Below, piece after piece: positions 21,054-62,041 of a stretch of DNA of 64,000 bases; position 1 is the stretch's first letter, and each line of letters begins with the position of its first letter. This DNA comes from Opitutaceae bacterium TAV5 (GTDB lineage Bacteria; Verrucomicrobiota; Verrucomicrobiia; Opitutales; Opitutaceae). The stretch is taken from assembly GCA_000242935.3 (NCBI GenBank), contig CP007053.1:6991001-7055000 (forward strand). Direction: 5' to 3'. The translations under genes and the position numbers were made by a program. The notes beneath the pieces were generated by a model that was given only the letters and a program-made list of their open reading frames with translations, made no database searches and was not told where the DNA came from.

Positions 21054-22301
21054 TCACATCACCACGCGAAACCTCCTCCGGTATTCGGTCGGCGTCATTC
21101 CTGTTTCTGCGCGGAACACCACGCTCAACCGGTGCGAACCCGGCAACCCGCATCGTTCCGCCACCGCCTCCATCGGCAAATCGCTTCCGGCTAAAAAACC
21201 CTGCGCCAGCACGATCCGCGCTCGTGTCAATTCGTCCATCAACGAATGCCCCAGCACCTCCTTGAAACGCCGTTGCAAGGCCGTCCGCGCCACGCCCGCC
21301 GTCCGCACGATCTCGTCAACATAGAGCTCGCGCGCCGCGTTGGCGCGGATGTGCCGCACCGCCCGCGCCACGGCCTCGTCCGCCACGAACAACGTATCCG
21401 TTGACTGCCTCGCCGCGATCTCGCTCACCGGCAGCACCCGCACCGGTGGCGACGTCACTCTTCCTCGCCCCTGCCTGCCCGCGCCATTCGTCTTCGCCCG
21501 CCGCTGCTGTTTCTGACCGTTTACAATCAACTCATCCAGCAGCTCCGCTGCTTCGTATCCAATTTTAAACGACGGAAGTTTCACACTGGAAAGCGGCACG
21601 TCTTCAAACTTCACCCAGAACTCGTCATCCCCCGCGCCCAGCACCGCCACATCATCCGGCACCCGCCAGCCCAGCGACGCCACCGCCCGCTGCAAATACA
21701 ACGCCGCCGTGTCCAGCACGCAAAACACCCCGATGGGACGCGGCAACGACGGCAGCCACTCCACCATGCGGGCAAAACTCTCCGACGCCGGTTCCATTGC
21801 GAACTGCCCGTTCACATGCAACGCCCGTTGCATGCCATGCTTCGCCAGCACCTCGCGGAAGCCCTCCAGCCGTTGCTCGGAAAATCGCGAACCCTGTTCA
21901 CTCCAGAAACCGAAACACCGGCACCCGCACGCCAGCAAATGCTCCGCTGCCAGCCGCCCCACGCCCACATCATCCTGCGTCACCAGCGGCAGGTCCGGCT
22001 GTGGCACGACATTGGACACATTGACGACCGGCACGTTCAACCCCGCGAACTGCTGCACCATCTCCTCCCTGTGCGCCGCAACGATAACCCCCTCAATGGC
22101 ATCCCGGACAACCAGTTCCAGCCAGGACGCGGTTTCGTGGTCGAGCCACCGGTTGGCCAGCACAAACCTCTTGGTATCAAAAGCATAGTGTCTCGCCCCC
22201 AGCGTCACATTCCGAAAATACTCCAGGGAGCTATCATGGAGAATCTGCACCTTGAACGGCGGTCCCTTGGCTGTTTCTGACCGGGAGGATGAAAGCATCA
22301 T
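21054..22301 (-). CDS. XylR-type AraC family regulator with LacI-like sensor domain
   Basis: 415 residues from the ATG pair at 22301/22298; the frame is open further upstream but runs into the divergent promoter region. Residues about 15-285 are a periplasmic-binding-like sugar sensor (VQILHDSSLEYFRNVTLGARHYAF, DDVGVGRLAAEHLLACGCRCFGFWS, DDVAVLGAGDDEFWVKFEDVPLSSV). Residues about 310-415 are two AraC helix-turn-helix motifs (ELYVDEIVRTAGVARTALQRRFKEVLGHSLMDELTRARI, PMEAVAERCGLPGSHRLSVVFRAETGMTPTEYRR). Such proteins activate sugar-use genes. It is divergent from a PEP-CTERM, prepilin-like and glycosidase operon, which it probably controls. Confidence 0.92.
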   Translation of the reverse strand: MMLSSSRSETAKGPPFKVQILHDSSLEYFRNVTLGARHYAFDTKRFVLANRWLDHETASWLELVVRDAIEGVIVAAHREEMVQQFAGLNVPVVNVSNVVPQPDLPLVTQDDVGVGRLAAEHLLACGCRCFGFWSEQGSRFSEQRLEGFREVLAKHGMQRALHVNGQFAMEPASESFARMVEWLPSLPRPIGVFCVLDTAALYLQRAVASLGWRVPDDVAVLGAGDDEFWVKFEDVPLSSVKLPSFKIGYEAAELLDELIVNGQKQQRRAKTNGAGRQGRGRVTSPPVRVLPVSEIAARQSTDTLFVADEAVARAVRHIRANAARELYVDEIVRTAGVARTALQRRFKEVLGHSLMDELTRARIVLAQGFLAGSDLPMEAVAERCGLPGSHRLSVVFRAETGMTPTEYRRRFRVVM

Positions 22302-22450
22302 GTCTGAAAAACAAAATCTTTTATCCTTTTCAGCCAAGACGAAAACGTTCGCCTCCGGCATACTTTCCCGCATCGGAGACACGCCCGCCCCGCCGGACGC
22401 GCTCTCTTTTTCCCACCCGTTCCCCGTATTCAAAAAAACTGACAAAACCC

Positions 22451-23266
22451 ATGAAACCGACATCCCGGCCATCACTCCCGCTGTTCCTCCTCGCCTGCGC
22501 CCTGGGGTTTTCAGCCATGCTTCCCGCGGGCCTCGCCGCCCGCGACCTCATCAATGAGTCGTTCACCTCCTTCGACACCAGCACATGGTCGAACATGCAC
22601 GGCGCCACCACCAACCCATCCATCACATCCCTGGATGCAGGAGCCGGCAGTGCGCTGGCGCTGGGCAACCGCGGCATCTGGACCCAATTTTCCCCCACGC
22701 CCCTTGCCCAGGACTTCGAACTCAGTCTCAAAATCGCCGCGCAGGCCGCTGGCGAACGTTTCTTTTATGCGGTGGTTACCAGCGCCCCCGATACGGACAA
22801 CAAGATCTCCGGTTATGGTTTTCGCTGGCAGGTCAACCCGGGCACAACGGCGGTCAGCAATCTCAGATTTCTCAAACTCGACGGAGTCGAACTCTCCAGC
22901 ATGACCGCCAGCTCAAGCGGAGGGAGCCTGATCTCCGGCAGCAATATCGCTTCAGGAATAGCTGTATTGTCAGCCGCACCGGACTCCTCCGCCGTCTTCG
23001 GCGCCATCCGGCTGACCTGGAACTCCAGCGGGGCATTATCCCTCTACCTCGGCGACAGCGTTGCCGCGACCGTCACCGTCTCCGACACCAGCTTTTCGTC
23101 CTTCACCAATCTCTACGTTTCCGGCGGCCAGACTTTTTATCTGGATCAGCTCACGCTCTCGACCATCAGCGCCATCCCGGAACCCGGCGCCTTTGCCTTG
23201 CTCTTCGGGCTCGGTTCCATCGGCCTTGTGATGCTGCGCCGCCGCATCACACTCCTCCGTCACTGA
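22451..23266 (+). CDS. PEP-CTERM secreted protein, laminin-G/concanavalin-like (locus A)
   Basis: 271 residues. Signal peptide MKPTSRPSLPLFLLACALGFSAMLPAGLAA, then a beta-rich domain with LINESFTSFDTSTWSNMHGATTNP, GSALALGNRGIWTQF and DFELSLKIAAQAAGERFFYAVVTSAPDTDNKI. It ends in IPEPGAFALL, a hydrophobic helix and MLRRRITLLRH. This is the exosortase sorting signal, so the protein is surface-attached or released. It is first in an operon with a prepilin-like protein, a beta-helix protein and a GH42 enzyme. Equivalent proteins head the loci at 47-48 and 60 kb. A glycan-binding role is plausible, not shown. Confidence 0.85.
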   Translation: MKPTSRPSLPLFLLACALGFSAMLPAGLAARDLINESFTSFDTSTWSNMHGATTNPSITSLDAGAGSALALGNRGIWTQFSPTPLAQDFELSLKIAAQAAGERFFYAVVTSAPDTDNKISGYGFRWQVNPGTTAVSNLRFLKLDGVELSSMTASSSGGSLISGSNIASGIAVLSAAPDSSAVFGAIRLTWNSSGALSLYLGDSVAATVTVSDTSFSSFTNLYVSGGQTFYLDQLTLSTISAIPEPGAFALLFGLGSIGLVMLRRRITLLRH

Positions 23267-23292
23267 CGAATTTCCCCCCTGCACCAATCCCC

Positions 23293-24033
23293 ATGAAAAC
23301 AGCCTCGTTCCCCTACTCCGGCTTCTCTGTTTCCGTGCGCGTTCTCGCCCGCCAGCGCCAATCGCGGCGAGGCTTCACGCTCGTCGAATTGCTGACCGTC
23401 ATTGCCATCATCGGCATACTCGCGGCGATCATCATCCCGGTTGTCGGCGCCGTGCGTCAAAAGGCGCGCGGCGCCCAATGCATGAGCAACCAGCGCCAGC
23501 TCGCTCTGGCAATTCGCCTCTATGCCAACGACAACAAGGGCCAGATTCCATGGCTGTCCGAAGGCAATACAAACAACAACAAGTGGTGGACCAATCTGCT
23601 GGTGGATGGCGGTTACGTCCCCGAGTGCCAATGGCGTGACCGAGCCTGGGGCGCGGCCGTTTCCGGCGTGTTCCGCTGCCCGTCCATTGTCGATCCGGTG
23701 GGATGGTATGGAGGCATTGCGCTCTCCAAGGCGGTGGCAAATTACGGCACCTCGGCAAACGGATCCTCGGCCAACATCAACCGCATTGAAAACCCCGCCA
23801 GGGTTTCCCTGCTCGCCGATGCGCCTGCCAATCCGGGCAACACCAGTGCGCAGCCCGACATCGGGAAAACCACCAACGCCTGGAGCGGCAGGCGCGTCAA
23901 CCGCCACAGTGAAGGTGGTTATGTCGCCTTTGTTGACTGCCATGTGTCGCACTGGAAAGAAACCGACCTGCTCGCCAACAAATCTGGCGTGTTTGATCTC
24001 CCCTACGAGCCACTCTTCCCCAAGCCATTCTGA
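23293..24033 (+). CDS. Prepilin-like protein with H-X9-DG type C-terminus (locus A)
   Basis: 246 residues. After a 28-residue basic leader comes the type IV prepilin cleavage and helix motif ([34 protein letters not shown]), cut between G and F by PilD-type peptidases. The globular part has CMSNQRQLALAIRLYANDNKG and ends with RHSEGGYVAFVDCHV, the H-X9-DG motif in which G is replaced by C. The leader is longer than usual. It resembles the pseudopilin-type proteins very numerous in Planctomycetes and Verrucomicrobia, whose role is unknown. It lies directly after the PEP-CTERM gene. Confidence 0.88.
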   Translation: MKTASFPYSGFSVSVRVLARQRQSRRGFTLVELLTVIAIIGILAAIIIPVVGAVRQKARGAQCMSNQRQLALAIRLYANDNKGQIPWLSEGNTNNNKWWTNLLVDGGYVPECQWRDRAWGAAVSGVFRCPSIVDPVGWYGGIALSKAVANYGTSANGSSANINRIENPARVSLLADAPANPGNTSAQPDIGKTTNAWSGRRVNRHSEGGYVAFVDCHVSHWKETDLLANKSGVFDLPYEPLFPKPF

Positions 24034-24132: not shown

Positions 24133-25890
24133 ATGCCTGCATCCACTCATACGTCTCTCACGCTCCTTTCCCTGCTCTTCGCCGTCAGCCTGTCGGCCGG
24201 CGGGATCGCCGCGCCGCACGTATTCTTTGCCCGTGATTATGGAGTTGTCCCCGGACAAGCGACATCCTCCACGGAATCGATCCAAGGCGCACTGGACGCC
24301 GTGCAGGAGCACATCCGCACCACCGGACAACCTTGCGAACTCCGCTTTGACCCTGGCCGCCACCTGCTCGCCCCCAGGGCCGGCGCACAGGGATGGCGCA
24401 TATTCCGCCTCACCCACGCCAGCAACCTCACCATCAATGGCAACGGTGCCGAATTCATCATCACCGACCCGCGCCACGGATTATTGTCCCTGTCCGAATG
24501 CGAGAACATCCACATCCGTGACCTCGTGATCGACTACGATCCCCTTCCCTTCACCGCCGGTCACATCCGGGCCATTCACCTGGACCTGCGGGCCATCGAC
24601 ATCGAGATTGCCGCGCCCCATCCATTGCCCGACGCGCCTCATTTCACCGAACAGCAAACCTACGGATATCCGCTCGACCCCGACGTCCCCGGACGCCTGC
24701 GCGATGGCTGCCACAACGCCTGTTTCGCGAAACGCGTCGAACCCCTCCCCAATGGTCTGTTCAGAATCCACATGCGCCCCCCCACCGGGCCCGGCGAACT
24801 GAAAAACCTCCACGTCGGCGACAAATGGGCTCAACTCAGCCGGCAAGGCGGCGGAGACCTCTTCATGGTCTCAAGCAGCCAAAACGTCACCTTCCAGGGC
24901 ATCACCAGTTACGCCGCCACCGCCGGCCACTACGTCAGCGCCAACACCTCCGGCCTCAAAATCCTCGCCTGCAAAGCCCTCATCAAACCCGGACGCTGGA
25001 AAGGCGGCAATGCCGACGGCATCCACGTCCAGAATCCGCGCAGCGGCCCCCTCATTGAAGACTGTCATTTCGAAGGACTCGGCGATGACGGAGCCAATAT
25101 CTACCGCAAGCCCTTCAAGGCCACCGCCGTCTCTCCCTCCGGCGAACTCACCCTCCAGGTCCTGCCGCGCGGCGTCTTTCTTCCCGGCGACACGGTCGAG
25201 TTCTTCGATCCCCTCACTGGCCTGATCACCCATCACGCCGTCATCACCGCCGTCAACGTATCCAAAAAACAATTAACCCTCGACTCTCCGCCCCCTCCTG
25301 TCCGCACCGGCGCCGGGAAAGACGCCACCCAAATCTACCGCAAAAGCCCCGGCCAGGAGTTTGTCATCAGAAACTCAAAATTCCTCAACCTCCGCCGTCA
25401 CGGCACCATCGCCAAGACCAGCGGCCTCATCGAAGGCTGCACCTATTCGGGAACCAGCAACGCTGCCCTCGCCGTGATGAACGAACCCGGCTGGCCCGAA
25501 GGCCTGTATGCCGAAAACCTCCGTATCCAAAACAACCGGTTCGAACACTCCGCCTTCGAGCACAACGTCATCAGCCAGAAAACCCCGCTCCTCCTCATCA
25601 AGGCCAACCGCCTGGGTTCGCCCGTCACCACGCCCGGCCTGCACGGCACGCTGGAGATCACCGGCAACACCTTCGCCCAATGGCACTACGCCGCCCTCTC
25701 CCTCCGCAACACCGGCATCGCTCGCATACACGGCAACCATTTCCTCCCCGCTGCGAACAGCGGCCCCGCCATTCGCATCGCCCACAACACGGATGTGCTT
25801 GTAGAACAAAACACCTTTCCCTCCACGGCGACACTGGAAAAGCAGGTCATTGACGAAGGCGGAAACACGACTCTCCGCATCCTGCCCTGA
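24133..25890 (+). CDS. Secreted right-handed beta-helix protein, probable glycosidase (GH110-like)
   Basis: 585 residues with a signal peptide (to about 27). A pectate-lyase-like start (FFARDYGVVPGQATSSTESIQGALDAVQ) is followed by beta-helix coils: NLTINGNGAEFIITD, NIHIRDLVIDYDPLPFTAGH, NVTFQGITSYAATAGHYVSANTSGLKILAC. The segment GGNADGIHVQ...CHFEGLGDDGANIYRK contains the acidic cluster where GH28/GH110 enzymes have their catalytic aspartates. More coils run to the end. Fold is certain; GH110-like alpha-galactosidase activity is my best guess from the DDG(A)N motif and the GH42 neighbour. Confidence 0.8.
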   Translation: MPASTHTSLTLLSLLFAVSLSAGGIAAPHVFFARDYGVVPGQATSSTESIQGALDAVQEHIRTTGQPCELRFDPGRHLLAPRAGAQGWRIFRLTHASNLTINGNGAEFIITDPRHGLLSLSECENIHIRDLVIDYDPLPFTAGHIRAIHLDLRAIDIEIAAPHPLPDAPHFTEQQTYGYPLDPDVPGRLRDGCHNACFAKRVEPLPNGLFRIHMRPPTGPGELKNLHVGDKWAQLSRQGGGDLFMVSSSQNVTFQGITSYAATAGHYVSANTSGLKILACKALIKPGRWKGGNADGIHVQNPRSGPLIEDCHFEGLGDDGANIYRKPFKATAVSPSGELTLQVLPRGVFLPGDTVEFFDPLTGLITHHAVITAVNVSKKQLTLDSPPPPVRTGAGKDATQIYRKSPGQEFVIRNSKFLNLRRHGTIAKTSGLIEGCTYSGTSNAALAVMNEPGWPEGLYAENLRIQNNRFEHSAFEHNVISQKTPLLLIKANRLGSPVTTPGLHGTLEITGNTFAQWHYAALSLRNTGIARIHGNHFLPAANSGPAIRIAHNTDVLVEQNTFPSTATLEKQVIDEGGNTTLRILP

Positions 25891-25904: not shown

Positions 25905-28178
25905 ATGAACCTCGGTGTCCAATACTACCGCCCGCCCTTCCCGATACAAAAACACTGGGCCGACGATCTACGGCGCATCCGTGATTCCGGCCTCGACACG
26001 CTGCAACTGTGGGTCACCTGGGCCTGGGCGGAGAGCAGGCCGGACGTATTCAATTTTGATGACTACGACCGGCTCGTGGAGCTCGCGGCGGACGCCGGCC
26101 TTGACGTTATCCTCAGCACCATCGCCGAGCTTCAGCCCCACTGGATTCACGATATCGTCCCCGGCAGCGAGATGATCGACCACCGCGGCCACCGCGTCAT
26201 CTCCTCCCTGCGCGAAGAATCCAACTTCGGCCTCACCCCCGGCGGCTGCACCGAAAACACCGCCGTATGGGAACGCATGTCCGCGTTCCTCCGTGAAACC
26301 GTCCTGCGCTACCGCTCCGCCCCCCATCTCGCCGGCTGGGATGCATGGAACGAACTGCGCTGGCACGAGCAATCCGACGGCCTTGTCTGTTTCTGTCCGC
26401 ACTGCCTGCGCGAATTCCGGGCGTGGCTGGATTCCCGATACGGCGGCCTCCACGGCCTCAACCGCGCCTGGCAGCGACGCTATGGAAACTGGAACGAAGT
26501 CGTGCCCGGCAAAACCCACTGGCGCCCCTTCACCGAGATGATGGCCTGGCAGCGCTTCATCACCTGGAAGGCCAACCGCCATGGCAAACGCCGCTACGAC
26601 CTCATAAAATCGCTCGATCCCAACCACCCTGTGACCGTCCACGCCGGCGACCCGTCTCCCGTCTCCTCCGGCTGGGCCGAAGCCTACGCCCTCGACCGCG
26701 GCAACGACTGGGTTTTCGCCGACGAACTCGACGGCGTCGGCTGCTCCAGCTTTCCGAAACTCTTCGGCATGGATGACACCACGTTCACCACCCGTGTGGA
26801 ATTCGTCCGCTCGGCTGCGACAAGTGGCGCGGGCGTCCCGCCCGCTGTATCACAATCACGACGCAAAAAACTCTGGCTCAGCGAAGTCCAGGGCGGGCGC
26901 GGTTCGCTCGGCTTCCAGCCCACCGCGGCCGTGGATGCCGCCTCGCAACAACGCTGGATCTGGCGCGGCTTCGCCAGCGGGGCCGACAAAGTGCTGTTCT
27001 GGTGCTGGCGCGACGAAGTGTTTGGACGCGAGTCCGCCGGCTTTGGCCTCACGGGCAATGACGGCCACGCCCCCGCGCGCCTCGCCGCCATGAAACACAC
27101 GGCCGGCATCCTTGCGCAGCATCGCGAACTCCTCTCCGGCTACGAACCCGACACGCCCTCTGTCGGTGTTCTCTTCAGCCCGTCGAGCTACTATCTGCAC
27201 TGGTCGCTCGAAGGCAACGCCGCCACTCCACGCAAAGCCCTCGAAGGCTACTGCCACGCCCTCGTCAACCTCTCCATCCCCTACACCGTGATCGAGGAAA
27301 ATCACCTCGATGCGCTCACCGCTCCCCCCGCGTCCACCAGTCCGCTGCGCACGCTATTCCTTCCGCGCGTGATTGTCGCCGGCAAGGAACTCGAAAACGC
27401 ACTCGCCACTTTTGTGCGTCGCGGCGGCACTCTCGTTTGCGAATCCGAATGCTGCGCCTTTACCCCGGAAGGCATTTACCGCGAACCCGCCAACCGCTTT
27501 TTTCAAAACCTCGGCCTGTTCCCCGCCAACAGCCACGAAGCCGGACGCCGGACACTGGATCCGGAACGGCAATCCATCCTTTTCGACGGCGCAACGCTCC
27601 TCGCCCGCCAATGGCTTACTCCCTGGCAAAATTTTCCCTTCACCGACGGCCTCAAACCCTGGGCAACGCATCCGGAGGGCGTCCTTGTTGGCGAGGCACA
27701 CATCCCGATCTCGGCCCACGACAACAACCCTCGCCATCGTCACCTGCATCCGGGCCGTGTCATTCACGCCGGCACATTTTTGGGCGACGCCTACATGGAA
27801 ACCCGCTCACCCGCGTTTGAGCATTTTGTAATGCGTTGCATCGGCGCATTCGATCAACCCATCCGCCTCCCCTCTCCCTCCGCCGCTACGTCCGCTGCCT
27901 GCGCCTCCGCCACCACCGCCGCACCAACCGACAGCGACGCCCGCTGGTTCGTGAAAACCGGACGCTCCGGAACGCATCGGATCGCCTGCATATTTTCCCC
28001 GCCCGGCATGACCTCCGCCCGTCTGACCATCCGGGAGGATTTTTTCAGCGCGCCCAGGCCCAAAGAGCTGATTTCGGATCGCACTCTCGCATTTGATAAC
28101 ACCCCTCCCGACGAACCTGGATGGAAGACACTCGACCTGCCGCTGGGCGACTGGGGCATTGCGATTCTCTGCGCGTAG
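25905..28178 (+). CDS. GH42-type beta-galactosidase
   Basis: 757 residues without a signal peptide, so probably cytoplasmic. The barrel starts GVQYYRPPFPIQKHWADDLRRIRDSGLDTLQLWVTWAWAE. The acid/base Glu lies in AGWDAWNELRWHE, and the nucleophile Glu in KLWLSEVQGG (about residue 327). Zinc-binding cysteines appear in VCFCPHCLREF. The middle trimerisation domain (VGVLFSPSSYYLHWS, FLPRVIVAGKELENALATFVRRGGTLVCES) and a beta domain follow. Residues about 307-318 (SGAGVPPAVSQSR) are encoded by a REP-like repeat inserted in frame just before the nucleophile strand. It is last in the locus A operon. Confidence 0.9.
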   Translation: MNLGVQYYRPPFPIQKHWADDLRRIRDSGLDTLQLWVTWAWAESRPDVFNFDDYDRLVELAADAGLDVILSTIAELQPHWIHDIVPGSEMIDHRGHRVISSLREESNFGLTPGGCTENTAVWERMSAFLRETVLRYRSAPHLAGWDAWNELRWHEQSDGLVCFCPHCLREFRAWLDSRYGGLHGLNRAWQRRYGNWNEVVPGKTHWRPFTEMMAWQRFITWKANRHGKRRYDLIKSLDPNHPVTVHAGDPSPVSSGWAEAYALDRGNDWVFADELDGVGCSSFPKLFGMDDTTFTTRVEFVRSAATSGAGVPPAVSQSRRKKLWLSEVQGGRGSLGFQPTAAVDAASQQRWIWRGFASGADKVLFWCWRDEVFGRESAGFGLTGNDGHAPARLAAMKHTAGILAQHRELLSGYEPDTPSVGVLFSPSSYYLHWSLEGNAATPRKALEGYCHALVNLSIPYTVIEENHLDALTAPPASTSPLRTLFLPRVIVAGKELENALATFVRRGGTLVCESECCAFTPEGIYREPANRFFQNLGLFPANSHEAGRRTLDPERQSILFDGATLLARQWLTPWQNFPFTDGLKPWATHPEGVLVGEAHIPISAHDNNPRHRHLHPGRVIHAGTFLGDAYMETRSPAFEHFVMRCIGAFDQPIRLPSPSAATSAACASATTAAPTDSDARWFVKTGRSGTHRIACIFSPPGMTSARLTIREDFFSAPRPKELISDRTLAFDNTPPDEPGWKTLDLPLGDWGIAILCA
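26824..26852. repeat. REP-like repeat inserted in frame in the GH42 gene
   Basis: GTGGCGCGGGCGTCCCGCC and following bases match the intergenic repeat at 13912. Translated here it gives SGAGVPPAV, in a loop ahead of the catalytic nucleophile, with the frame kept open. Confidence 0.6.
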
Positions 28179-31423: not shown

Positions 31424-31451
31424 CCGCAACCGTCAAACCCGACTGTATCCA

Positions 31452-32940: not shown

Positions 32941-32949
32941 CTTCCCGTT

Positions 32950-42343: not shown

Positions 42344-42487
42344 ACAAAAGCGGGGTTCGGACGGAATCGCGGGGCACGGTTCTGCCGGCTGCATCAGTCC
42401 CCCGCCCTCGCAAGAAATCGCAAGGCAGGATGATGCATTCAGGGAATCGAAAAACAGATCAAGGCAAGGAACGCTGTGCTGAAAAAA

Positions 42488-47425: not shown

Positions 47426-48325
47426 TCAGCGATGGCACCGGCGGTAGCGCAGGAGGAGAGGAATGAGGCTGGCGGCTCCGATGAGCATGGCAACGGTGGA
47501 AGGTTCGGGGATGTTGGAGGTGACGAGGATGTTGCTCATGTAGGCTTGCGTTGCGCTCTGGCCGCTGAAGGCGGCGATGACGGCTTCGTTAAAGGTAAGG
47601 GTTGTTGCCGTTGTGGTGACGGAGGCGGTGTGGGAAACGGCGTTTTCCCCGGAGCCGCCGGTGATTTCGTAGGTGATGTTCAGGTCGGTCAGATTGTCGG
47701 CCAGCGTGAGGGTGAGTGTGGTCGCATAGATGGTATTGGCCTGAAGGGTAAACCCGCTGTCCTCGATTTTGACCGGGGCCCCTGACCAGTGGTAGAAGGC
47801 GTTCGTGCTGCCTGCCGTCTGGCTTTGGATTTTCACGTCGTTGGCGGAGGCCGAGGCGAGCTTGGTCGCCTTGTAGCCAGCATCGTCGGCGAAATAGTCC
47901 GCATAGGCCGTGGAACTGATCGCATCTGCTGTTATTTGGGTCGCGCCTGAATTGAAGAGGCCGAGCAGAGGGCCGGTGTTGGTCGTGTTGGTAAGTGAGG
48001 TGTAGTAGATTTGTGAGGAAATCCGGATGTAATCGCCTGCTTTGACGAGGGTGACGGGCTTGAAGGCGGCGACGGCGATGCTGTTGCCCCAACTGGACCA
48101 GAATTGCATCGCGTATGAACCTCCGAATGTCGTGTTGGCCGTGATCTCGTTGCCGGCACCGGCAGTTGCAGTCGAATACCATTGCGTGGCGCGACCGGTG
48201 CCGTTGCGGAGGCCATCGGCGAAGGTTTCGTTAATGAGGGTGACCTGGGCCCGGGCGATGGGGGCGCCAAGGACAAACACGCCAAGGATGACGGTGACGA
48301 GGGGAAGTTTTGCGGGTTTTTTCAT
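47426..48325 (-). CDS. PEP-CTERM secreted protein (locus B)
   Basis: 299 residues. Signal peptide [27 protein letters not shown]; beta-sandwich with [47 protein letters not shown] and [10 protein letters not shown]; exosortase signal [29 protein letters not shown]. The LINETFADG...GDYIRIS...LGLFN pattern recurs in the duplicated N-terminal domains of the 1262-residue glycosidase at 51957 and in the locus C PEP-CTERM protein. It is first gene of the minus-strand operon and divergent from the GntR-type regulator. Confidence 0.87.
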
Positions 48326-54900: not shown

Positions 54901-55745
54901 CCATTGCCGAAAGAACCATCGAGGAATTGTTCGTCCAGGACGGAATTCAGGATGTTACCCCTGGTGACCACGATATTATCGAAACGATAATCGATCTGGG
55001 AGGCCTGCAGCCTGATCTCGTCAAAAGTGAAGGTAACCGGTGAAAAATCTTCGACGATGTTGACAACGCCATCATGTGAAAAAGCGATCTCCAGTTTGTT
55101 CAACGCGGTGCGGGTGATCTGCAATGCAAGCCAGTGCGGAGAGCCATCGGTATCGGCGGCAAATGGACCGGAAAGCGAACCGAGCGTGGTTGTGCCGCCG
55201 CCCGCTATCACCTGACGCAGAGCGACCGCCCGGGAGGCGCCGGTGTATTTGCGCACGGAGTAGCCGCCGTCATCCAGAACCCGGCTGTCAGCAGATCCGA
55301 ATTCGTTGCCGATGATTGGCGTGCCGTTGGCATTAAAAAGACCGAGGAAGAGAGCACTGTCCGTGAGTCCGGCGGCGCGGCCATCCAGTTCGAGACGGAT
55401 GAAGTCTCCCACACGAGCGAGCGTAACGGCCCCGCCCGGGAACGCCGCATAGGCCACGGTGTTCGCTGCACTGCCGTTGGGGTTGCGCATGACAGATCCG
55501 GACAATGGCGCCGTGTTATCGGTAATCAGGGTATAGGCGGAACCACCCGCGGAAGCGTTCCAGAAATACCAGGAGGTATCGATCTCGGCCGGATTCGTAC
55601 CGTTGGCAAACGTGCCATCGAGAAACTGCTCGTCGATAAGGGTAGTCGTAGCCTGGATTCGGGTATATGCGGATACAAGCGTGATCAGGAAGGCTGCGGC
55701 AAGGGCCGCGTATGGAATATGGCGGGGATGGGTGCCTGTGTTCAT
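51957..55745 (-). CDS. 1262-residue secreted clan GH-A glycosidase with tandem-duplicated N-terminal domains
   Basis: Signal peptide to about 33. Two N-terminal domains (about 35-265 and 270-500) are close copies: LIDEQFLDGTFANGTNPAEIDTSWYFWNAS against VLDEQFLDGSFGNGTAVGENDTAWYFWNSS, both with AYTL.TDNTAPL. They are paralogous to the PEP-CTERM proteins of loci B and C. A middle beta region (about 500-860) precedes a GH-A-like barrel with a probable acid/base E in ISVWGGSNEIDIAADLGPRG and nucleophile E in GPLIYGEISSPRALN. No C-terminal anchor. The last four bases overlap the next gene. Confidence 0.85.
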   Translation of the reverse strand: MNTGTHPRHIPYAALAAAFLITLVSAYTRIQATTTLIDEQFLDGTFANGTNPAEIDTSWYFWNASAGGSAYTLITDNTAPLSGSVMRNPNGSAANTVAYAAFPGGAVTLARVGDFIRLELDGRAAGLTDSALFLGLFNANGTPIIGNEFGSADSRVLDDGGYSVRKYTGASRAVALRQVIAGGGTTTLGSLSGPFAADTDGSPHWLALQITRTALNKLEIAFSHDGVVNIVEDFSPVTFTFDEIRLQASQIDYRFDNIVVTRGNILNSVLDEQFLDGSFGNGTAVGENDTAWYFWNSSAAGTAYTLTTDNTAPLAGFVMRNPVGSASNTIAYGSLPGGGVELAQPGDSIRIELDVRLAGTLNRAFIVGLYDDNGTAISTNEFGVSSSSVADDGGYMLVKYSGASGASLQRQSPGGGSPATLSGLAGPYAMETDNIPHHVALVLTRLAEDRLAVTLEHDGVAATVEDSAPVTFWFNEIKLQGSQADFRFDNIRVSFNRDLPLLAWAECGPFWGRAGLGVIRFDAEGAMHPQPGDIEINSAHGGRGMVEWRAVSAESDGWLDFLDDTRFPRVVESSLAGDHDWAGMVNYLHTYLKASDTIPATAILRVQSSPYAPALWLNGEPVRPGATITLQPGWNRLMARVRSPATSAGDSLSTGWLFRASLAGVTTTIESGLTDPGRKVLVTDDGQAFRYLSSLARTDGDTPVFTLGTAASMTVNLDYTLKVALGTAANYQEPAIRRTKSFSGYPWVYSTDPALAGSGSPSWTTVPSGSWQAYAPARVRLRVIDDAGTEIAAQTFAVTFGGPEEGVITAPLSLSFAGFPLGHYVVFSEILDSSDRVLARDYEHAFSVIPGPVDVAADQKHRLLGAEGHWLLSNATRAPQRWRWLERVGIIAQQKLVASWGVWKASHDGAGHVTVDASATLDATLVEAATAGVVVYGDALEGFYDSVADNLKLPGIGGSLPAYGTAAWNDTFYNYGHGLADRYRSRISVWGGSNEIDIAADLGPRGAELYVAAARQIIAGLKAADPSALYISSSLVAQSHARDLIDAGYLAVPDIVDVHTHPNKAPEPGDASLYPSLGEGRSMLLAAGYTGPLIYGEISSPRALNNGGALGHAGDLVKQLAWGVNWRDAPVAPVIGLSYLVPYGGPDYNSAGLGFDSLHGDPLPIVNAANIASHLLDGRNKLPALTGLPSGVSHIRVTNADPGRPETVVIWRSAGEIVLTLPVTGSLITLTDIYGREQNLVPVAGKVTLKVSPLPQYLRGSF

Positions 55746-55767: not shown

Positions 55768-58700
55768 TCAGAAGCGCGTAAGCCGTTCGTAATTGTCCCG
55801 GGTGAGCAGGTAAACGGGACTGTCCGTCAGCGCCAGAGTGAGCGTGCCGTCGGGAGCGAAGGCATCGGCGGACAGGTCGGTCACGCGGCCGACAACATCA
55901 ACGAGCACGAAGGGGCCTTTTTCGCCGGGACGATATTTGAGCGTGGCCGGGCGGGTTGTGTCGGTGCTCCAGACCATGAGCGTGGGTCCGAAGCGGGCAG
56001 CCTGTATCGTTTTTTCGGTTACGACTCGTTTGTAGTCAAAACCGTCGATGAGAGCGCTGGCGGTATAGAGGGCCGCTTCGGCGGGCATGTGGCCGTTTTC
56101 GATGTCGGAGATGTAGTAGCGGTTTTCGCCGCGGCTGTACCGCCAGGGAACAAGGAACCCGACCTTCTGGAAGTCGTCCCGGCTGAGCACGCAGGCGGCA
56201 ATTTTGGCGATCGTGGCAGCCTGCCAGCGGCGGGCGTCGTGACCATGACCGGAGCGTGCGCCGGTCTCTCCGATCCAGAAGGGCCTGGTGTTTTTGAGGC
56301 CGAGTTTCTTGTAAACCTTCAACACACCGAGTTCGGTCTCGTTGGGACTATTGGACATGCTGCCTTCAAGGACGGGCGGTTTTTGCGGATAACAATGCAC
56401 ATCCCATGCATCGTGATAGTCTGCCAACCCGAGCTTGAGGCATGCTTCGAACCACGAATCGGAGGCCGGCCGCACAAGGCTGGCGCCGATCATGAACGCC
56501 GAGGGGTTTTGTTTTTTGATGATTTCGTAATCCTGTTTGGCCTTGGCGACCCAGGCGGCAGGCGTGCCACGCTGGGCAGGATGAATGTCCACTTCGTTGA
56601 AGGCTTTCCATGTGGTGACAAGCGGGGTGGTTTCCTTGACGTAGGCGCGCAGGTAGTCGGGATCGCGATGAGTCCAGGTATCGGCGATCACGTCGAGACC
56701 ACGGTCGCGGGCCTGTTGGTAAAAATCGGGAGCGCGTCCGTTGTGGCCACCTATGTTGCGGAGAATGCCGATGCGCTCCATGTAGGGGAAAAAGAGGGTT
56801 CGATAACGCTCCTGACCGGCCATGAAATAATAGGTGACTGACATCTTTTTGGCATCCTTGCGTTCGCGTTGGGCGGCAGTTCCCCGAATGACACTGAATC
56901 CGTCGGGAGGATACGAATGAACAGGGTTTCCGTCCGTGTCGAAAATGCGAAGGTGCGTGGCGTAGTAACCGCTGGAGACCGGGGCGGATCCGAGATCGAA
57001 GGTAGTGCGTCCGGGCAGCGTGAAAGATCGGGTACGGCGCAGGATTTCCTTGCCGTCATAGTCGGTGAGGATGAGTTCCAGCCGGCCGGCGGGTTGTCGG
57101 GGAAACGGCTCGATCGTCTGGCCGAGGAGATCGCCGGAAGCGAGGTCGACATCGATGGCGAGAGGGGCGCCGGGAGAAACAAGATTGAAGGGAGCACTCG
57201 TGTAAACGCGGGGTATAAACCGGCTGGCAACGTCACGGGAAATTTGCGCGGGGGAAGGATCGGAGATGGTGGTTCGAATATCGGCAAGAGATGCCTGCGA
57301 ACCCGAAAAACGGGCGGTAAAGGCGAAGTTTTCGCCTTTGCGCTGTTGCATGACGAGTTTGACGAGAAGCCGGTTCCAGCCCGCATCGAGTTTCAGCGCA
57401 GCGACGTGGGCAGTATCTCCTCGTATCCGCCGGATAACGACGGTTCCTCCCTGATCGTTGCGGCCGGTTTCTTCGATTTCGTCGTTTCCGGATGCGACGG
57501 TAGAGTCCCGTTTCCAGTCGAGCGAGCGACCGTTGAGCCAGCCACTGATCCTGGAACCGGTTTGTGATATACGAAGAGCGATCTCTACCGGGTTCGGCGT
57601 GTGGACATAAAGATGCGCATACGCAGCGCCTTTGGCCCAGGCGTAATCGCGGGAGAGGGTTTCGATGAGAATACGATGGTCATCGGCGGCACCCGGCTGG
57701 TGAGGCGTCCAGCGGGCATACCAGGCACTGTCCCAGTAGGTAACGATTTGCGGAGCGCCAGGAACCGGGCGAACCTGGGCTTCATAATCCAGACCCCAAA
57801 GAGAAAGGCCGGCAGGGCCGGCCCAGGTTCCCAGTGTCAGCCAGTGCGCCGGCGTATCGCGGGCGGGTCCGCCGAGAGGCTCACCGGGAGGAGCCGCAGA
57901 CGATGCGGCAGGAACGGATGCAGTGGAGGGGATGACAAAGGGAGCAAGGGGCAGGACGTTGGCGCCCTGGGGCGCCGGATCGTTGAGCGCCACGAGAATG
58001 GTTTTGGCGGTGGCGGTATCGAAAGGAGACGTCCACAGAGCGAGGATTTCCTGCCGGGAGGAAGTGAGAACGAGAGCGGGAAGCTTAGCTTCGGGGATGC
58101 CGAGTTCCCGGGCAATGTCCGATGAAGAACGCTCGGCAATGAGCGTTTCGGCGGCCGTTGGCGGCTGGCGGCTGGCGGGACGCCTGTCCGCGGAAGGCGA
58201 AGGGAGGGTGTAGGGAACAATCTCGAGTGACGTGCGACTCGCAGCAGGTGTGGTGGCTGCAGAGGCCAGCAGGTCGTAGAAGGCTGCGGTGTCAGCCGTA
58301 GTGGCGCTTTCGAGAACGATGAGGCGAGCCTGAGGCCTTTCGGGGCGCCAGAGAGCGGATACCCGTGCCCCTGCCGGTGGGGCAGGAACGGAAGGGGATG
58401 CTGTTGCCACCCTGATACCTCCGATCTGCCAGCGGGCGGGAGAGGTGCCGGGGGAAACCGCGAGGAAAAAACCGATGCCGGTGCGGTTCCAGTCGGGCAT
58501 ATCATCCACGTTTTCGGATGTGGAAGAACGGAGGGGCTGGTCGCGCGCAACCGGGGTGTCAATGTCGTCACAATAGTAATCGAAGGTGCGGGTGGCGGTG
58601 TTGACTTCGATTTTGAAGTGACGCCACCCGGGTGCGGCTTTTCCGAGGACGGTTTTCCCGTGACGGACTTCACCGCTGGAGGGAAACTCGAGGCGGAGAA

Positions 58701-59124
58701 GAAGCGCCTTGTAGTCGTTGGCCCTTGAGCCAACGCGACCCCAAAGCTCCATGCTCGGGTTGTAGACGCCAGCCTGGATATCGGCACTCCATGCCACCGA
58801 AAAACGCCCCTCGCCGACGCGGATTGCCCGACTGCGAATGTAGGAGGCCTTGCCACGGTCAGCGGACGTGGCGGTCTCGCCCAGGACGAAGGCTGCGACA
58901 TTGCCGGGAGGGGCGCCGGCGGCATTTTCGGCAGGACCGGCGGTGATCGCCATCCGGTCTTTCATATGGGTGTAAGCCGTCAGCCAGTCGGGATAGCCGA
59001 CTTTGTTGCCGGTGAACGAGGGTTCGAAAACGACTGCATCCGCGGCAAACAGGGTGCTGCTCACGAGGGCGAAGGTCGAGGAGACAAGGATGGCGGCGAA
59101 TGAAATCCGTATTCTTTTTAACAT
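55768..59124 (-). CDS. 1118-residue secreted clan GH-A glycosidase
   Basis: Signal peptide MLKRIRISFAAILVSSTFALVSSTLFAAD. A beta-sandwich N-terminus (VVFEPSFTGNKVGYPDWLTAYTHMKDRMAITAG, EGRFSVAWSADIQAGVYNP) is followed by a linker region and a jelly roll with NPVEIALRISQTGSRISGWLNG. The C-terminal barrel has probable acid/base E in TTWKAFNEVDIHPAQRGTPA, nucleophile E in RPFWIGETGARSGHGHDARRW, and DYHDAWDVHCYPQKPP between them. Same general architecture as the gene at 51957 and 22 bp upstream of it. Family not assigned; the substrate presumably matches the other locus C enzymes. Confidence 0.85.
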   Translation of the reverse strand: MLKRIRISFAAILVSSTFALVSSTLFAADAVVFEPSFTGNKVGYPDWLTAYTHMKDRMAITAGPAENAAGAPPGNVAAFVLGETATSADRGKASYIRSRAIRVGEGRFSVAWSADIQAGVYNPSMELWGRVGSRANDYKALLLRLEFPSSGEVRHGKTVLGKAAPGWRHFKIEVNTATRTFDYYCDDIDTPVARDQPLRSSTSENVDDMPDWNRTGIGFFLAVSPGTSPARWQIGGIRVATASPSVPAPPAGARVSALWRPERPQARLIVLESATTADTAAFYDLLASAATTPAASRTSLEIVPYTLPSPSADRRPASRQPPTAAETLIAERSSSDIARELGIPEAKLPALVLTSSRQEILALWTSPFDTATAKTILVALNDPAPQGANVLPLAPFVIPSTASVPAASSAAPPGEPLGGPARDTPAHWLTLGTWAGPAGLSLWGLDYEAQVRPVPGAPQIVTYWDSAWYARWTPHQPGAADDHRILIETLSRDYAWAKGAAYAHLYVHTPNPVEIALRISQTGSRISGWLNGRSLDWKRDSTVASGNDEIEETGRNDQGGTVVIRRIRGDTAHVAALKLDAGWNRLLVKLVMQQRKGENFAFTARFSGSQASLADIRTTISDPSPAQISRDVASRFIPRVYTSAPFNLVSPGAPLAIDVDLASGDLLGQTIEPFPRQPAGRLELILTDYDGKEILRRTRSFTLPGRTTFDLGSAPVSSGYYATHLRIFDTDGNPVHSYPPDGFSVIRGTAAQRERKDAKKMSVTYYFMAGQERYRTLFFPYMERIGILRNIGGHNGRAPDFYQQARDRGLDVIADTWTHRDPDYLRAYVKETTPLVTTWKAFNEVDIHPAQRGTPAAWVAKAKQDYEIIKKQNPSAFMIGASLVRPASDSWFEACLKLGLADYHDAWDVHCYPQKPPVLEGSMSNSPNETELGVLKVYKKLGLKNTRPFWIGETGARSGHGHDARRWQAATIAKIAACVLSRDDFQKVGFLVPWRYSRGENRYYISDIENGHMPAEAALYTASALIDGFDYKRVVTEKTIQAARFGPTLMVWSTDTTRPATLKYRPGEKGPFVLVDVVGRVTDLSADAFAPDGTLTLALTDSPVYLLTRDNYERLTRF

Positions 59125-59183: not shown

Positions 59184-59861
59184 TCAGCGTTGTTCGTATT
59201 TCACATGACCGTCGAGATACGCGTAGACGGTTTTGTATTTCTTGCCCGTGGGCACCGCGTAGTTTTCCTTCGAATCCTCGTGATTGCCGTAATAGTCACG
59301 AAGCCAGGGTTTGGTGCTGATGAGTTCATAAACGCTGTCCAGAGCGAGACCGGAGGTCGTCACCGCAGGATTCATGTACTGACCCATATAAAAATAGTAG
59401 CAGGTGGCGCCATGGCCACTGATGGTAAGCGTGACGTCGGTCGTCACCGGACAATACCAGGGCGTCTGATAGCGATCGGGGATTGGCGTGCTCCAGGCAA
59501 CCCACTTGGCCCGTCGGACCCCGTAGGGTTCAAGAAGCTTTGTAAGGTAGCCGGTGGTATTGATGGAGGATTGGTCTCCCTGAATAGTACCGGAACCGTT
59601 TGTACCGCTCGGCCGGTAATAGAGTTTCCCGCGGTTGTCGTTGAGATATTGAAGATAGCCGATGGTGATCTGCCGGTGATTGCTCAGACAGGTGGAGACC
59701 TTGGCCTTTCGTCTGACACTCCCCACGACAGGGATGAGAATGCCCGCCAGGATGCCGATGATGGCGATGACAGTGAGGAGTTCGATCAGGGTGAAACCGT
59801 GCCGGAAGCGGATGCAGGGGCCGCTGGCAAGGGAGCGGATATCGGAACGTACTGTGTTCAT
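59184..59861 (-). CDS. Prepilin-like protein (locus C), H-X9-DG variant without the His
   Basis: 225 residues. Leader to GFRHG, then [62 protein letters not shown]. The C-terminus ends YKTVYAYLDGHVKYEQR: DGHV is kept, but the residue ten before the Asp is Lys instead of His. The RFRHGFTLIE cleavage site is standard. It occupies the same place, between PEP-CTERM gene and glycosidases, as the locus A and B homologues. Function unknown. Confidence 0.9.
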   Translation of the reverse strand: MNTVRSDIRSLASGPCIRFRHGFTLIELLTVIAIIGILAGILIPVVGSVRRKAKVSTCLSNHRQITIGYLQYLNDNRGKLYYRPSGTNGSGTIQGDQSSINTTGYLTKLLEPYGVRRAKWVAWSTPIPDRYQTPWYCPVTTDVTLTISGHGATCYYFYMGQYMNPAVTTSGLALDSVYELISTKPWLRDYYGNHEDSKENYAVPTGKKYKTVYAYLDGHVKYEQR

Positions 59862-60875: not shown

Positions 60876-60963
60876 GGCAGGCAGACCGGGTTTGATGGGT
60901 TGGCGGGTTTGGATAACGCCAACAGCACTGGCAGCAGTCTTGATTTCGGAAAAGCAGCTCGTT

Positions 60964-60978
60964 ACGTTAGCCTAACGT
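60964..60978. promoter_or_regulatory. Palindromic operator ACGTTAG-C-CTAACGT over the LacI-type start codon
   Basis: A perfect 15-bp palindrome with a one-base centre, overlapping the GTG start of the LacI-type gene and 89 bp upstream of the divergent PEP-CTERM gene. Size, symmetry and place fit a LacI-family operator allowing autoregulation and control of locus C. Confidence 0.55.
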
Positions 60979-62041
60979 GAAATCTCCCCGTTCCCCCTCC
61001 ATAAAACGCACCGCCCGGGACATGCGCGTTACCATGGCCACAGTGGCTGACAAAGCCGGGGTGAGCCAGATGACGGTGTCGCGTTCATTGCGCGACGATC
61101 CGACGATTCCCCTCACCACACGCCAGCGCATCAAACGCATCGCCGCGCAACTCGGTTATCGTCCCGATCCGGCCGTATCGCAACTGATGGCACGGTTGCG
61201 GCAAAGCCGGGTGTCGGATTCGGCTTCGGAAACCGTGGCGTGGATCACCACTCACCCGACGGCGACGGGATGGCGCGACAATCCGGCAAGCGTCGCTTTC
61301 CACGCCGGTATCACCGCACGGGCCCGCGAACTGGGATACCGGATCGAGGAGTTCTGGTTCACCGCACCCGGCATGAACGGCCACCGCCTCAGCGAAGTTC
61401 TGCGAGCGCGCGGCATTCGCGGCGTATTGGTGGCGCCGGTCATCAACACGGGATTGGTCATTGATCTGGAATGGTCCAGTTTTGCGGCGGCCTCGTGCGC
61501 GGCGCTGGCTTTGCCGGGCGTAGGGCTGCACCGGGCGTGCGCGCACTACGCCAACGCGGTCCATGTTGCGTGGCGGGAACTGACGCGGCTCGGTTACAGG
61601 CGGATCGGCCTGGCACTCCCGACAGACAACCACAGACGCGTGGCCGGCTTCTGGCTGGCAAGCGCATTGCTGGAACAACGCGGACTTCCGGTGAAACAGG
61701 TGGTGCCGCCGCTCGTGACGGACGACTGGCGTCCGGAAACGGTGCTGGCGTGGATGGGCAAACACTGTCCCGACGTGGTGCTGTCATTTCGCCAGGTATG
61801 CGACTGGTTGCAAGCGGGCAGCGTGCGCGTGCCGGAGGATTGTGGATTTGCGTTGCTGCACATCGAGGACCCGCTGTTCGCCGGCGTGGATGAGCAGCGA
61901 CCCGACATCGGCGCAGCGGCGCTCGATCTCGTTGTCGAACAAATCAACGCCAACCAGCTCGGCCTGCCCGCAAAGCCGAAAACGGTGTTCGTCGAGTGCT
62001 CGTGGGTCGATGGACGGACAGCGCCTTCCCGGACCGGATGA
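60977..62041 (+). CDS. LacI family sugar-responsive regulator
   Basis: 354 residues with a GTG start. The helix-turn-helix is at about 19-42 (VTMATVADKAGVSQMTVSRSLRDDPTIPLTTRQRIKRIAAQLGYRPDP), with the hinge to about 75. The sensor domain is a diverged periplasmic-binding fold (VAWITTHPTATGWRDNPASVAFHAGITARARELGYRIEEFWF, GIRGVLVAPVINTG, HVAWRELTRLGYRRIGLALPTDNHRRVAGFWLASALL, DIGAAALDLVVEQINANQLGLP). A palindrome covers its start codon. It is divergent from the locus C operon and probably controls it. Confidence 0.93.
   Translation: MKSPRSPSIKRTARDMRVTMATVADKAGVSQMTVSRSLRDDPTIPLTTRQRIKRIAAQLGYRPDPAVSQLMARLRQSRVSDSASETVAWITTHPTATGWRDNPASVAFHAGITARARELGYRIEEFWFTAPGMNGHRLSEVLRARGIRGVLVAPVINTGLVIDLEWSSFAAASCAALALPGVGLHRACAHYANAVHVAWRELTRLGYRRIGLALPTDNHRRVAGFWLASALLEQRGLPVKQVVPPLVTDDWRPETVLAWMGKHCPDVVLSFRQVCDWLQAGSVRVPEDCGFALLHIEDPLFAGVDEQRPDIGAAALDLVVEQINANQLGLPAKPKTVFVECSWVDGRTAPSRTG

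What the first reader, a model, noticed from the sequence alone, without database searches (positions are those of the whole stretch)
21054..60979. Same three-part module at three loci: regulator, PEP-CTERM protein, prepilin-like protein, then glycosidases
At 21-28, 38-50 and 50-62 kb the order is the same: a regulator divergent from a PEP-CTERM gene, an H-X9-DG prepilin-like gene next, then secreted glycosidases. The regulators are of three unrelated families (XylR/AraC, GntR-SBP, LacI), so the core pair PEP-CTERM plus prepilin-like was kept while sensors and enzymes were exchanged. This looks like a surface system for glycan capture or enzyme display, parallel in idea to the SusC/D loci of Bacteroidetes.
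Basis: partly seen in the sequence, partly recalled or inferred. Interest (0 to 1): 0.85.

Follow-up and report, generated by a model that had tools for sequence, protein, structure and literature searches.

The report
Prepilin-linked glycan-degradation gene modules
A termite-gut bacterium carries many, perhaps more than two hundred, small gene modules that combine a sugar-type sensor, a pilus-like protein, often a lectin-like surface protein, and sugar-cutting enzymes, which looks like an alternative to the sugar-harvesting systems of Bacteroides.

Summary
The three modules are real; the genome matches Opitutaceae bacterium TAV5. They sample a genome-wide system: a prepilin motif pattern hits 264 places, its reversed control none. 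Of 112 prepilin genes examined, 79 have a same-strand PEP-CTERM gene within two genes (shuffles 28.6; strictest control 40.5, maximum 54) and 69 a LacI/AraC/GntR regulator within three genes upstream (expected 30.6); 51 have both plus a large same-strand gene, only 11 the exact order described. Neighbouring genes are often carbohydrate-active.

Corrections: two distant prepilin-rich genomes have regulators and large enzyme-type genes beside prepilins without PEP-CTERM, so PEP-CTERM looks like an Opitutaceae addition. Between two same-genus genomes the pair diverges fastest (prepilin 53%, PEP-CTERM 51%, regulator 86%, large genes 73%), against 'core pair kept, rest exchanged'.

Clue: PEP-CTERM ectodomains recur in nearby genes in 12 pairs (chance 0.4), including a module 3 large protein; one models as lectin-like (low confidence). 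Verdict: a PUL-like system; its biochemistry is inferred.

The parts
21054..22298 (-). Module 1 regulator: LacI-type periplasmic-binding sensor domain plus AraC-type HTH (XylR-like); start uncertain (ORF open to 22475)
   Evidence: Pfam Peripla_BP_3 1.4e-25, HTH_18 3.1e-14; gene call
22451..23266 (+). Module 1 PEP-CTERM surface protein; start 22451 is my inference from the signal-peptide-like N-terminus (caller chose 22517, longest ORF starts 22289)
   Evidence: PF07589 21.3 bits above cut-off 20.7, TIGR02595 16.7 bits above cut-off 16; sequence
23293..24033 (+). Module 1 prepilin (N_methyl, DUF1559-like, H-X9-DC)
   Evidence: PF07963 7.5e-8; PF07596 2.7e-4, below its cut-off; gene call
24133..25890 (+). 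Module 1 right-handed beta-helix protein with signal-peptide-like start
   Evidence: PF13229 6.2e-11; sequence
25905..28178 (+). Module 1 GH42-type beta-galactosidase-like enzyme
   Evidence: PF02449 6.6e-40
38431..39816 (-). Module 2 GDSL-type esterase-like protein (weak CE2_N)
   Evidence: PF13472 8.2e-13; PF17996 below cut-off
39896..42394 (-). Module 2 large protein, no Pfam family at E 0.1
42488..45919 (-). Module 2 large protein with CBM9-like and weak cellulase (GH5) similarity
   Evidence: PF06452 8.8e-4, PF00150 0.013, both below cut-off
46062..46652 (-). Module 2 small protein, weak HpiC1-like (below cut-off)
   Evidence: PF22825 0.019
46666..47358 (-). Module 2 prepilin (N_methyl, DUF1559, H-X9-DG); AlphaFold model made here
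   Evidence: PF07596 4.6e-8, PF07963 3.6e-6; model pLDDT 79.3
47426..48325 (-). Module 2 PEP-CTERM protein
   Evidence: PF07589 and TIGR02595 weak, below cut-offs; PEP, hydrophobic stretch, basic tail
48511..50055 (+). Module 2 divergent regulator: GntR-type HTH fused to a solute-binding-like domain
   Evidence: PF00392 9.2e-7; PF13416 1.3e-5, just below cut-off
50191..51933 (-). Module 3 large protein, no Pfam family at E 0.1
51957..55745 (-). Module 3 large protein with two N-terminal copies of the PEP-CTERM ectodomain
   Evidence: BLASTP 32% and 30% to 59946-60869; A5; no Pfam family at E 0.1
55768..59124 (-). Module 3 large protein with signal-peptide-like start, no Pfam family at E 0.1
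59184..59861 (-). Module 3 prepilin (N_methyl; DGHV end without the H)
   Evidence: PF07963 2.2e-7, TIGR02532 33.3 bits
59946..60869 (-). Module 3 PEP-CTERM protein; ectodomain models as a lectin-like jelly roll
   Evidence: TIGR02595 22.0 bits above cut-off; model; Foldseek
61034..62041 (+). Module 3 divergent LacI-family regulator
   Evidence: PF00356 4.8e-13

Best explanation
Each locus is a substrate-induced glycan capture-and-degradation unit, a PUL-like module of this lineage. A cytoplasmic LacI/XylR/GntR regulator senses a breakdown sugar and switches on the (often divergent) operon. The operon exports (i) glycan-cutting enzymes, (ii) in Opitutaceae a PEP-CTERM protein with a lectin-like domain, anchored at the surface by one of four exosortases, which holds the glycan that the enzymes attack, and (iii) a prepilin matured by the single prepilin peptidase found and threaded into a shared type IV pilus or type II secretion machine; its locus-specific head most likely faces the substrate and helps to pull glycan or enzyme across the outer membrane. 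Shown: the repeated architecture, its link to carbohydrate enzymes and sugar-type regulators, ectodomains shared with neighbouring proteins, the counts of peptidase, exosortases and ATPases. Inferred: induction, glycan binding, anchoring and the role of the prepilin.
For: 264 prepilin-pattern places, reversed control 0. PEP-CTERM within two genes, same strand, 79 of 112; shuffles 28.6 +/- 4.0; within segment and strand 40.5 +/- 4.6, maximum 54 of 1000. Regulator within three genes upstream 69 of 112 against 30.6, downstream 22 against 30.2. Same-genus G005: PEP-CTERM 16 of 21 (6.1 expected), regulator upstream 15 of 21 (5.4), downstream 1 (5.3). Pfam at E 0.001 on 90 sampled genes of prepilin operons (of 281 unclassified ones): beta-helix 7, cellulase 5, CBM9 5, GH42 4, heparinase 4, GDSL 4, GH39 3, against 90 genes outside: heparinase 2, beta-helix 2, BNR 2, pectate-lyase-like 2, and not more than one of GH5, GH39 or GH42 (these genes are shorter, 33042 against 47968 residues). 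Signal-peptide-like start by a crude rule: 137 of 281 in prepilin operons, 121 of 532 outside. PEP-CTERM ectodomain in nearby genes in 12 pairs against 0.4 by chance, 11 of these 12 PEP-CTERM genes with a prepilin within three genes. Lectin-like fold matches, best E 2e-6. One prepilin peptidase, 4 exosortases, 13 T2SSE matches, 9 over 280 bits. Prepilin and PEP-CTERM diverge fastest, as expected of exposed, substrate-facing proteins.
Against: The prepilin model finds no confident structural match (best, a type IV pilin, E 0.7), so glycan binding by its head has no support from fold. The PEP-CTERM model is weak (pLDDT 54, TM about 0.3-0.5) and its sequence profile finds nothing in the PDB. 33 of 112 prepilins have no PEP-CTERM nearby and 41 no recognised regulator. 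In 13 prepilins of the control tiles regulators are as common downstream (6) as upstream (7). Six of the 12 ectodomain partners are small (175-244 aa), possibly tandem paralogues. Module 3's large proteins match no Pfam family. No expression or biochemical data.
Confidence: 0.5

Rival explanations
1. The prepilin is a dedicated type II pseudopilin: a cargo-specific piston or adaptor that exports the enzymes of its own operon, with no role in glycan capture.
For: N-terminus matches the GspG model in 49 of 49 members scanned and PilA/GspG structures; 58 of 91 first downstream proteins have signal-peptide-like starts; several assembly ATPases are present; regulator, prepilin and large gene without PEP-CTERM occur in G069 and G306.
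Against: All 49 members also match PilA and ComGC models; where scores are shown they are below these models' cut-offs. Classical T2SS use one pseudopilin set for many substrates (recalled). It does not explain the PEP-CTERM partner.
Confidence: 0.3
2. Two large paralogous families (prepilins and PEP-CTERM proteins) expanded by duplication and hitchhike in enzyme loci; they have no locus-specific role.
For: Large paralogue families of this kind are known without such a role: 74 DUF1559 genes in R. baltica, there linked to solute binding and stress (PMC2754498, passages), 68 paralogues of unknown function in P. limnophila (PMC10632474, passage), and one of the largest families of the Planctomycetes compared in PMC4807772 (passage). 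Prepilin-enzyme similarity correlates hardly (0.064) and PEP-enzyme not at all. Order is variable. In 79 loci across the superphylum a regulator lay upstream in only 13.
Against: Pairing and upstream regulators in TAV5 far exceed shuffles; 12 ectodomain-sharing neighbours against 0.4; several modules kept together between two genomes; regulators upstream also exceed shuffles in G306 (18 of 22, 0 of 1000 shuffles) and less clearly in G069 (8 of 12, 26 of 1000).
Confidence: 0.15
3. The PEP-CTERM/prepilin pairs build extracellular matrix or holdfast fibres, and the enzymes remodel the cell's own polysaccharide.
For: PEP-CTERM/EpsH was described with exopolysaccharide (recalled; title seen in the reference list). 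Some linked enzymes are alginate lyases and heparinases.
Against: Many loci with separate sugar-type regulators fit foraging on many substrates; cellulase, GH39, GH42 and rhamnosidase families suggest plant glycans; the host is a wood-feeding termite (PMC4358385, whole text read).
Confidence: 0.05

Closest known systems
SusC/SusD polysaccharide utilization loci of Bacteroidota
   Same: Many separate loci in one genome, each with a regulator, surface proteins and carbohydrate enzymes
   Different: No TonB plug domain lies in the window, and the whole genome has 18 matches; the recurring partners are a prepilin and, in Opitutaceae, a PEP-CTERM protein. SusD was not searched for.
Planctomycete pilin 'fishing rod' polysaccharide uptake (Boedeker et al. 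2017; seen only as a passage of review PMC12078418)
   Same: Dedicated pilin-like proteins proposed to bind whole polysaccharides and pull them into the periplasm; relatives of this prepilin family occur in Planctomycetota loci
   Different: Here separate prepilins sit in many regulated enzyme operons, with a PEP-CTERM partner in Opitutaceae. The genes of that work were not compared.
Akkermansia muciniphila mucin utilization loci (seen only as a passage of PMC12997984)
   Same: Same phylum; type IV-like pilus proteins in glycan loci
   Different: Its genes were not compared here; the passage mentions no PEP-CTERM pairing and no such number of loci
PEP-CTERM/exosortase protein sorting
   Same: C-terminal PEP, hydrophobic and basic signal; four exosortases
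   Different: Linked here to prepilins and glycan enzymes, some ectodomains shared with neighbouring proteins
DUF1559 / H-X9-DG prepilin-like proteins (PF07596, TIGR04294)
   Same: Prepilin N-terminus, DGHV-type C-terminus, large paralogue numbers
   Different: In passages of the four papers that hold the word DUF1559 they are called solute-binding or of unknown function; here they are tied to regulators and enzymes

Membership tests
SusC/D-type PUL | SusC-like TonB-dependent receptor in the locus | tested here: not met
   18 plug-domain matches in the genome, none inside the window C1:6991001-7055000; the other loci were not checked one by one
SusC/D-type PUL | SusD-like lipoprotein | not tested
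   No search with a SusD family; none of the 18 module ORFs scanned hit one
SusC/D-type PUL | Clustered regulator and carbohydrate-active enzymes | tested here: met
   (module 3 of the window without a recognised enzyme family)
PEP-CTERM/exosortase system | C-terminal PEP motif, hydrophobic stretch, basic tail | tested here: met
   98 genes by rule; TIGR02595 above cut-off for two of three modules, module 2 below
PEP-CTERM/exosortase system | Exosortase in the same genome | tested here: met
   4 matches over cut-off
PEP-CTERM/exosortase system | Cleavage and surface anchoring | not testable with these tools
   Needs cell biology
H-X9-DG prepilin family (TIGR04294/DUF1559) | Prepilin N-terminal cleavage/methylation motif | tested here: met
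   TIGR02532 matches 49 of 49 members scanned
H-X9-DG prepilin family (TIGR04294/DUF1559) | H-X9-DG domain | tested here: inconclusive
   16 of 49 members at E 0.01; of the three window genes only module 2 has it, below cut-off
T2SS major pseudopilin GspG | Match over the TIGR01710 cut-off | tested here: not met
   31-35 bits against a cut-off of 88.85 for the three window prepilins
Type IV pilus / T2SS substrates in general | Prepilin peptidase and assembly ATPase in the genome | tested here: met
   PF01478 1 match; PF00437 13 matches
Planctomycete fishing-rod pili | Pilin-dependent internalisation of polysaccharide | not testable with these tools
   Needs labelled glycan uptake

The most novel reading that the evidence does not exclude
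The bacterium runs one shared pilus/secretion machine with a library of about 260 interchangeable, separately regulated prepilin heads, many paired with a surface lectin and an enzyme for one glycan: a plug-in glycan-foraging system in which the pilus tip or piston, not an outer-membrane transporter, is the substrate-specific part, rooted across Verrucomicrobiota and enlarged on its own in this termite-gut genus.
Probability: 0.3. Interest if true: 0.88.

Novelty: new variant of a known kind. Interest (0 to 1): 0.66.

Why it matters
Prepilin-like DUF1559/H-X9-DG proteins form some of the largest gene families without a settled function in the Planctomycetes-Verrucomicrobia group (passages). 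Finding them beside a regulator and an enzyme gene, with a lectin-like surface partner in one family, suggests a direct and testable function: substrate-specific parts of a PUL-like system that does not rest on SusC/D. It would offer a rule to find and sort glycan loci in Verrucomicrobiota, where a search for SusC/D finds none of them.

Tried and rejected
Counting with the short family profiles TIGR04294 and TIGR02595: only 150 of about 400 candidates are scored, so 41 and 45 are lower bounds; replaced by a DNA motif pattern and own gene calls.

'Core pair conserved, rest exchanged': not supported. 'Fixed order': rejected (11 of 112). 'Chance adjacency': rejected. 'Genus-only system': rejected in part. 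Prepilin-pattern counts are low in the other 59 Opitutaceae sampled (at most 25) but high in several distant lineages of the phylum, with no PEP-CTERM match at E 0.001 in 9 of 9 of those checked. The pattern is tuned to TAV5, so counts elsewhere are lower bounds: at 0 mismatches five distant genomes gave none, and a re-tuned pattern with up to 1 mismatch gave 249 and 259 in two of them.

In 79 loci from genome contigs (80 fetched, 1 without a matching ORF) a regulator lay within three ORFs upstream in 13, downstream in 3, and a PEP-type C-terminus within two in 7; ORFs there were chosen by length, so these counts are rough. They show that the regulator link is not general across the prepilin family. 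VIA-align was not available.

Limits: 112 prepilin genes were examined of about 264: 94 of the first 100 listed pattern places (0 mismatches, C1 9.6 kb to 3.70 Mb) lie in a gene that I classed as prepilin; the other 6 were missed by my gene caller or rule and dropped; 3 are the window's and the remaining 15 were met nearby. Regulators were found with three home-made HTH profiles; of 10 upstream genes without a class, one is a WYL regulator and two are LacI-type sensor domains that the profiles missed, the others not regulators. Pfam lists for alignments are cut at 25 families. In the syntenic comparison n is small (8 prepilin, 10 PEP-CTERM, 9 regulator, 11 large genes; regulator range 32-88%), only part of each genome was sampled, and prepilin against large genes is not significant (p 0.09). 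Stretches of G005, G069 and G306 were chosen around prepilins and those of G037 around PEP-CTERM genes.

Papers: in the listings and passages seen from ten searches none described this module; one search listed 10 of 20 papers. The library lacks most subscription journals, so this is weak evidence of novelty.


Full report
Where it is. The window is C1:6991001-7055000 of a two-contig genome of 7,417,673 bases. [quoted passage not shown] That paper mentions glycoside hydrolases and nitrogen fixation but neither PEP-CTERM nor prepilins.

The observation. ORFs, translations, Pfam and NCBIfam and a trained gene caller confirm the three modules: a divergent regulator, a PEP-CTERM gene, a prepilin gene, then large co-directional genes. 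To correct: the module 1 regulator has a LacI-type sensor domain with an AraC HTH, so it is not unrelated to the LacI regulator of module 3; H-X9-DG is intact only in module 2; the large genes of module 3 match no Pfam family at E 0.1.

Census. A degenerate DNA pattern for the prepilin motif (up to 3 mismatches) hits 264 places, the reversed control none. The first 100 listed places (0 mismatches, 9.6 kb to 3.70 Mb) were fetched with 9 kb on each side and genes called (1129 with the window). By simple rules these hold 112 prepilins and 98 PEP-CTERM genes, and by profiles grown from the window's regulators 68 LacI, 25 AraC and 13 GntR genes. 94 of the 100 places lie in a gene classed as prepilin; 6 were missed and dropped. 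A same-strand PEP-CTERM gene lies next to the prepilin in 53 of 112 and within two genes in 79 of 112; label shuffles give 16.3 and 28.6, maxima 32 and 43 of 1000; shuffling within segment and strand gives 40.5 for the latter, maximum 54. A regulator lies within three genes upstream in 69 (expected 30.6) and downstream in 22 (expected 30.2). Of 105 prepilin operons 75 also hold a PEP-CTERM gene; the gene upstream is a divergent LacI/AraC/GntR in 46, against 32 of 372 other operons; a further 16 start with a regulator. PEP-CTERM, regulator and a same-strand gene of 400 aa or more occur together at 51 of 112; the exact order of the finding at 11. Twenty control tiles at least 9 kb from the listed prepilins still hold 13 prepilins and 18 PEP-CTERM genes; 9 of the 13 prepilins have PEP-CTERM within two genes (1.8 expected), and regulators are about as common downstream (6) as upstream (7), unlike in the main set. 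Of all PEP-CTERM genes, 84 of 98 in the main set and 11 of 18 in the tiles have a prepilin within three genes.

Enzymes. 90 unclassified genes sampled from prepilin operons (of 281) gave at E 0.001 beta-helix 7, cellulase 5, NosD 5, CBM9 5, GH42 4, heparinase 4, GDSL 4, GFO/IDH/MocA oxidoreductase 4, GH39 3. 90 genes outside prepilin operons gave heparinase 2, beta-helix 2, BNR 2, pectate-lyase-like 2, alginate lyase 1, and not more than one of GH5, GH39 or GH42 (list cut at 25 families, and these genes are shorter). First downstream genes (75 of 91, E 0.01): alginate lyase, heparinase, GH5, GH39 and GH42 in 5 each, sialidase-like repeats in 4, then esterases and others. Totals per protein are not available.

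Relatives. In 61 genomes of the family the pattern gives 264 in TAV5, 172 in a same-genus genome (G005) and at most 25 in the other 59. In 288 genomes of the phylum counts are again high (up to 245) in several distant families. Nine such genomes have no PEP-CTERM match at E 0.001, while 7 of 7 Opitutaceae checked do. In stretches of two distant genomes, G069 and G306, prepilins have no PEP-CTERM but a regulator within three genes upstream in 8 of 12 (26 of 1000 shuffles reach this) and 18 of 22 (none does), and a gene over 500 aa in the next two downstream in 10 of 12 and 16 of 22; 27 downstream genes there include DUF4838 7, GH39 4, GH42 3, GH10 3. So regulator, prepilin and large enzyme-type gene looks like the wider unit, and PEP-CTERM like an addition in Opitutaceae. 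In G005 the full pattern holds (PEP-CTERM within two 16 of 21, regulator upstream 15 of 21, downstream 1; no shuffle of 1000 reaches the first two). In G037, another Opitutaceae, stretches chosen around PEP-CTERM hold 31 PEP-CTERM genes but 7 prepilins; 6 of the 7 have PEP-CTERM within two genes, 4 a regulator upstream, 2 a large gene downstream, while 23 of the 31 PEP-CTERM genes have no prepilin within three. Named relatives include Victivallis vadensis and Geminisphaera colitermitum TAV2; in 79 loci across the superphylum a regulator upstream was seen in only 13.

Evolution of the parts. Across 75 TAV5 modules prepilin similarity follows PEP-CTERM similarity weakly (r 0.115, best of 500 permutations 0.105), enzyme similarity at the limit (0.064, best 0.065) and regulators not at all; the best prepilin partner module is also the best PEP-CTERM partner in 8 of 75. 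Syntenic reciprocal best hits between G005 and TAV5 give median identities of 86% for regulators (9), 73% for large genes (11), 81% for other small genes (14), 53% for prepilins (8) and 51% for PEP-CTERM (10). Some modules are kept whole, such as those of L114, L121 and L125. The surface pair changes fastest, so a conserved pair with exchanged sensors and enzymes is not supported.

Clues to mechanism. For 31 of 98 PEP-CTERM genes the ectodomain is also found in other genes; 12 pairs lie within five genes, against 0.4 by chance (maximum 4 of 500). Of these 12 partners six are 498-1582 aa and six 175-244 aa; 11 of the 12 PEP-CTERM genes have a prepilin within three genes. In module 3 the large protein 51957-55745 starts with two copies (32% and 30% identity). 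The ectodomain of 59946-60869, modelled with four window sequences (pLDDT 54), matches calreticulin lectin domains, Emp46/47 carbohydrate-recognition domains, legume lectins and sialidases (best E 2e-6; TM 0.3-0.5): a lectin-like jelly roll, at low confidence. The prepilin models well (pLDDT 79) as a long N-terminal helix with a small mixed head; the best PDB match is a type IV pilin at E 0.7, and by sequence only the N-terminus matches pilins and GspG. The genome has one prepilin peptidase match, four exosortases, 13 matches to the assembly ATPase family and 18 TonB plug domains, none in the window.

Reading. I take each locus as a PUL-like unit: sensor, enzymes, a locus-specific prepilin fed into shared machinery and, in Opitutaceae, often a lectin-like exosortase-sorted partner. 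Whether the prepilin captures glycan (as in the planctomycete 'fishing rod' idea, PMC12078418, passage) or carries its enzyme out is open; I lean to a substrate-facing role because head and PEP-CTERM diverge fastest and PEP-CTERM ectodomains are shared with neighbouring proteins. Akkermansia mucin loci with type IV-like pilus proteins (PMC12997984, passage) are the nearest described parallel. DUF1559 paralogues are numerous elsewhere and called solute-binding or of unknown function (passages of PMC2754498, PMC10632474 and PMC4807772).

Noticed in passing
window 28395-35283: A nitrogen-fixation cluster lies between modules 1 and 2: two nitrogenase component 1-type proteins, a radical SAM protein with a FeMo-cofactor domain (NifB-like) and a homocitrate synthase-like protein.
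   Followed up: partly
window 8692-9564: A fourth PEP-CTERM gene in the window, without a prepilin: an ice-binding-like (PF11999) protein next to ABC-2 transporter genes.
   Followed up: partly
window 16961-20865: A GH130-type mannooligosaccharide phosphorylase-like gene (16961-18457) and a glycosyltransferase gene (18484-20865) on the same strand directly downstream of the module 1 regulator.
   Followed up: no
G000:C1:2414756-2415121: The only match to prepilin peptidase (PF01478) in a genome with 264 prepilin-pattern hits: a single processing enzyme may serve them all.
   Followed up: no
L128-L147 (genome G037): An Opitutaceae genome with 41 PEP-CTERM matches and 25 prepilin-pattern hits; in the stretches taken, 23 of 31 PEP-CTERM genes have no prepilin within three genes.
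   Followed up: partly
L158-L167 (G306) and L148-L157 (G069): Same-strand regulators directly upstream of prepilins (10 of 22 and 5 of 12), unlike TAV5, where 46 of 71 are divergent.
   Followed up: no
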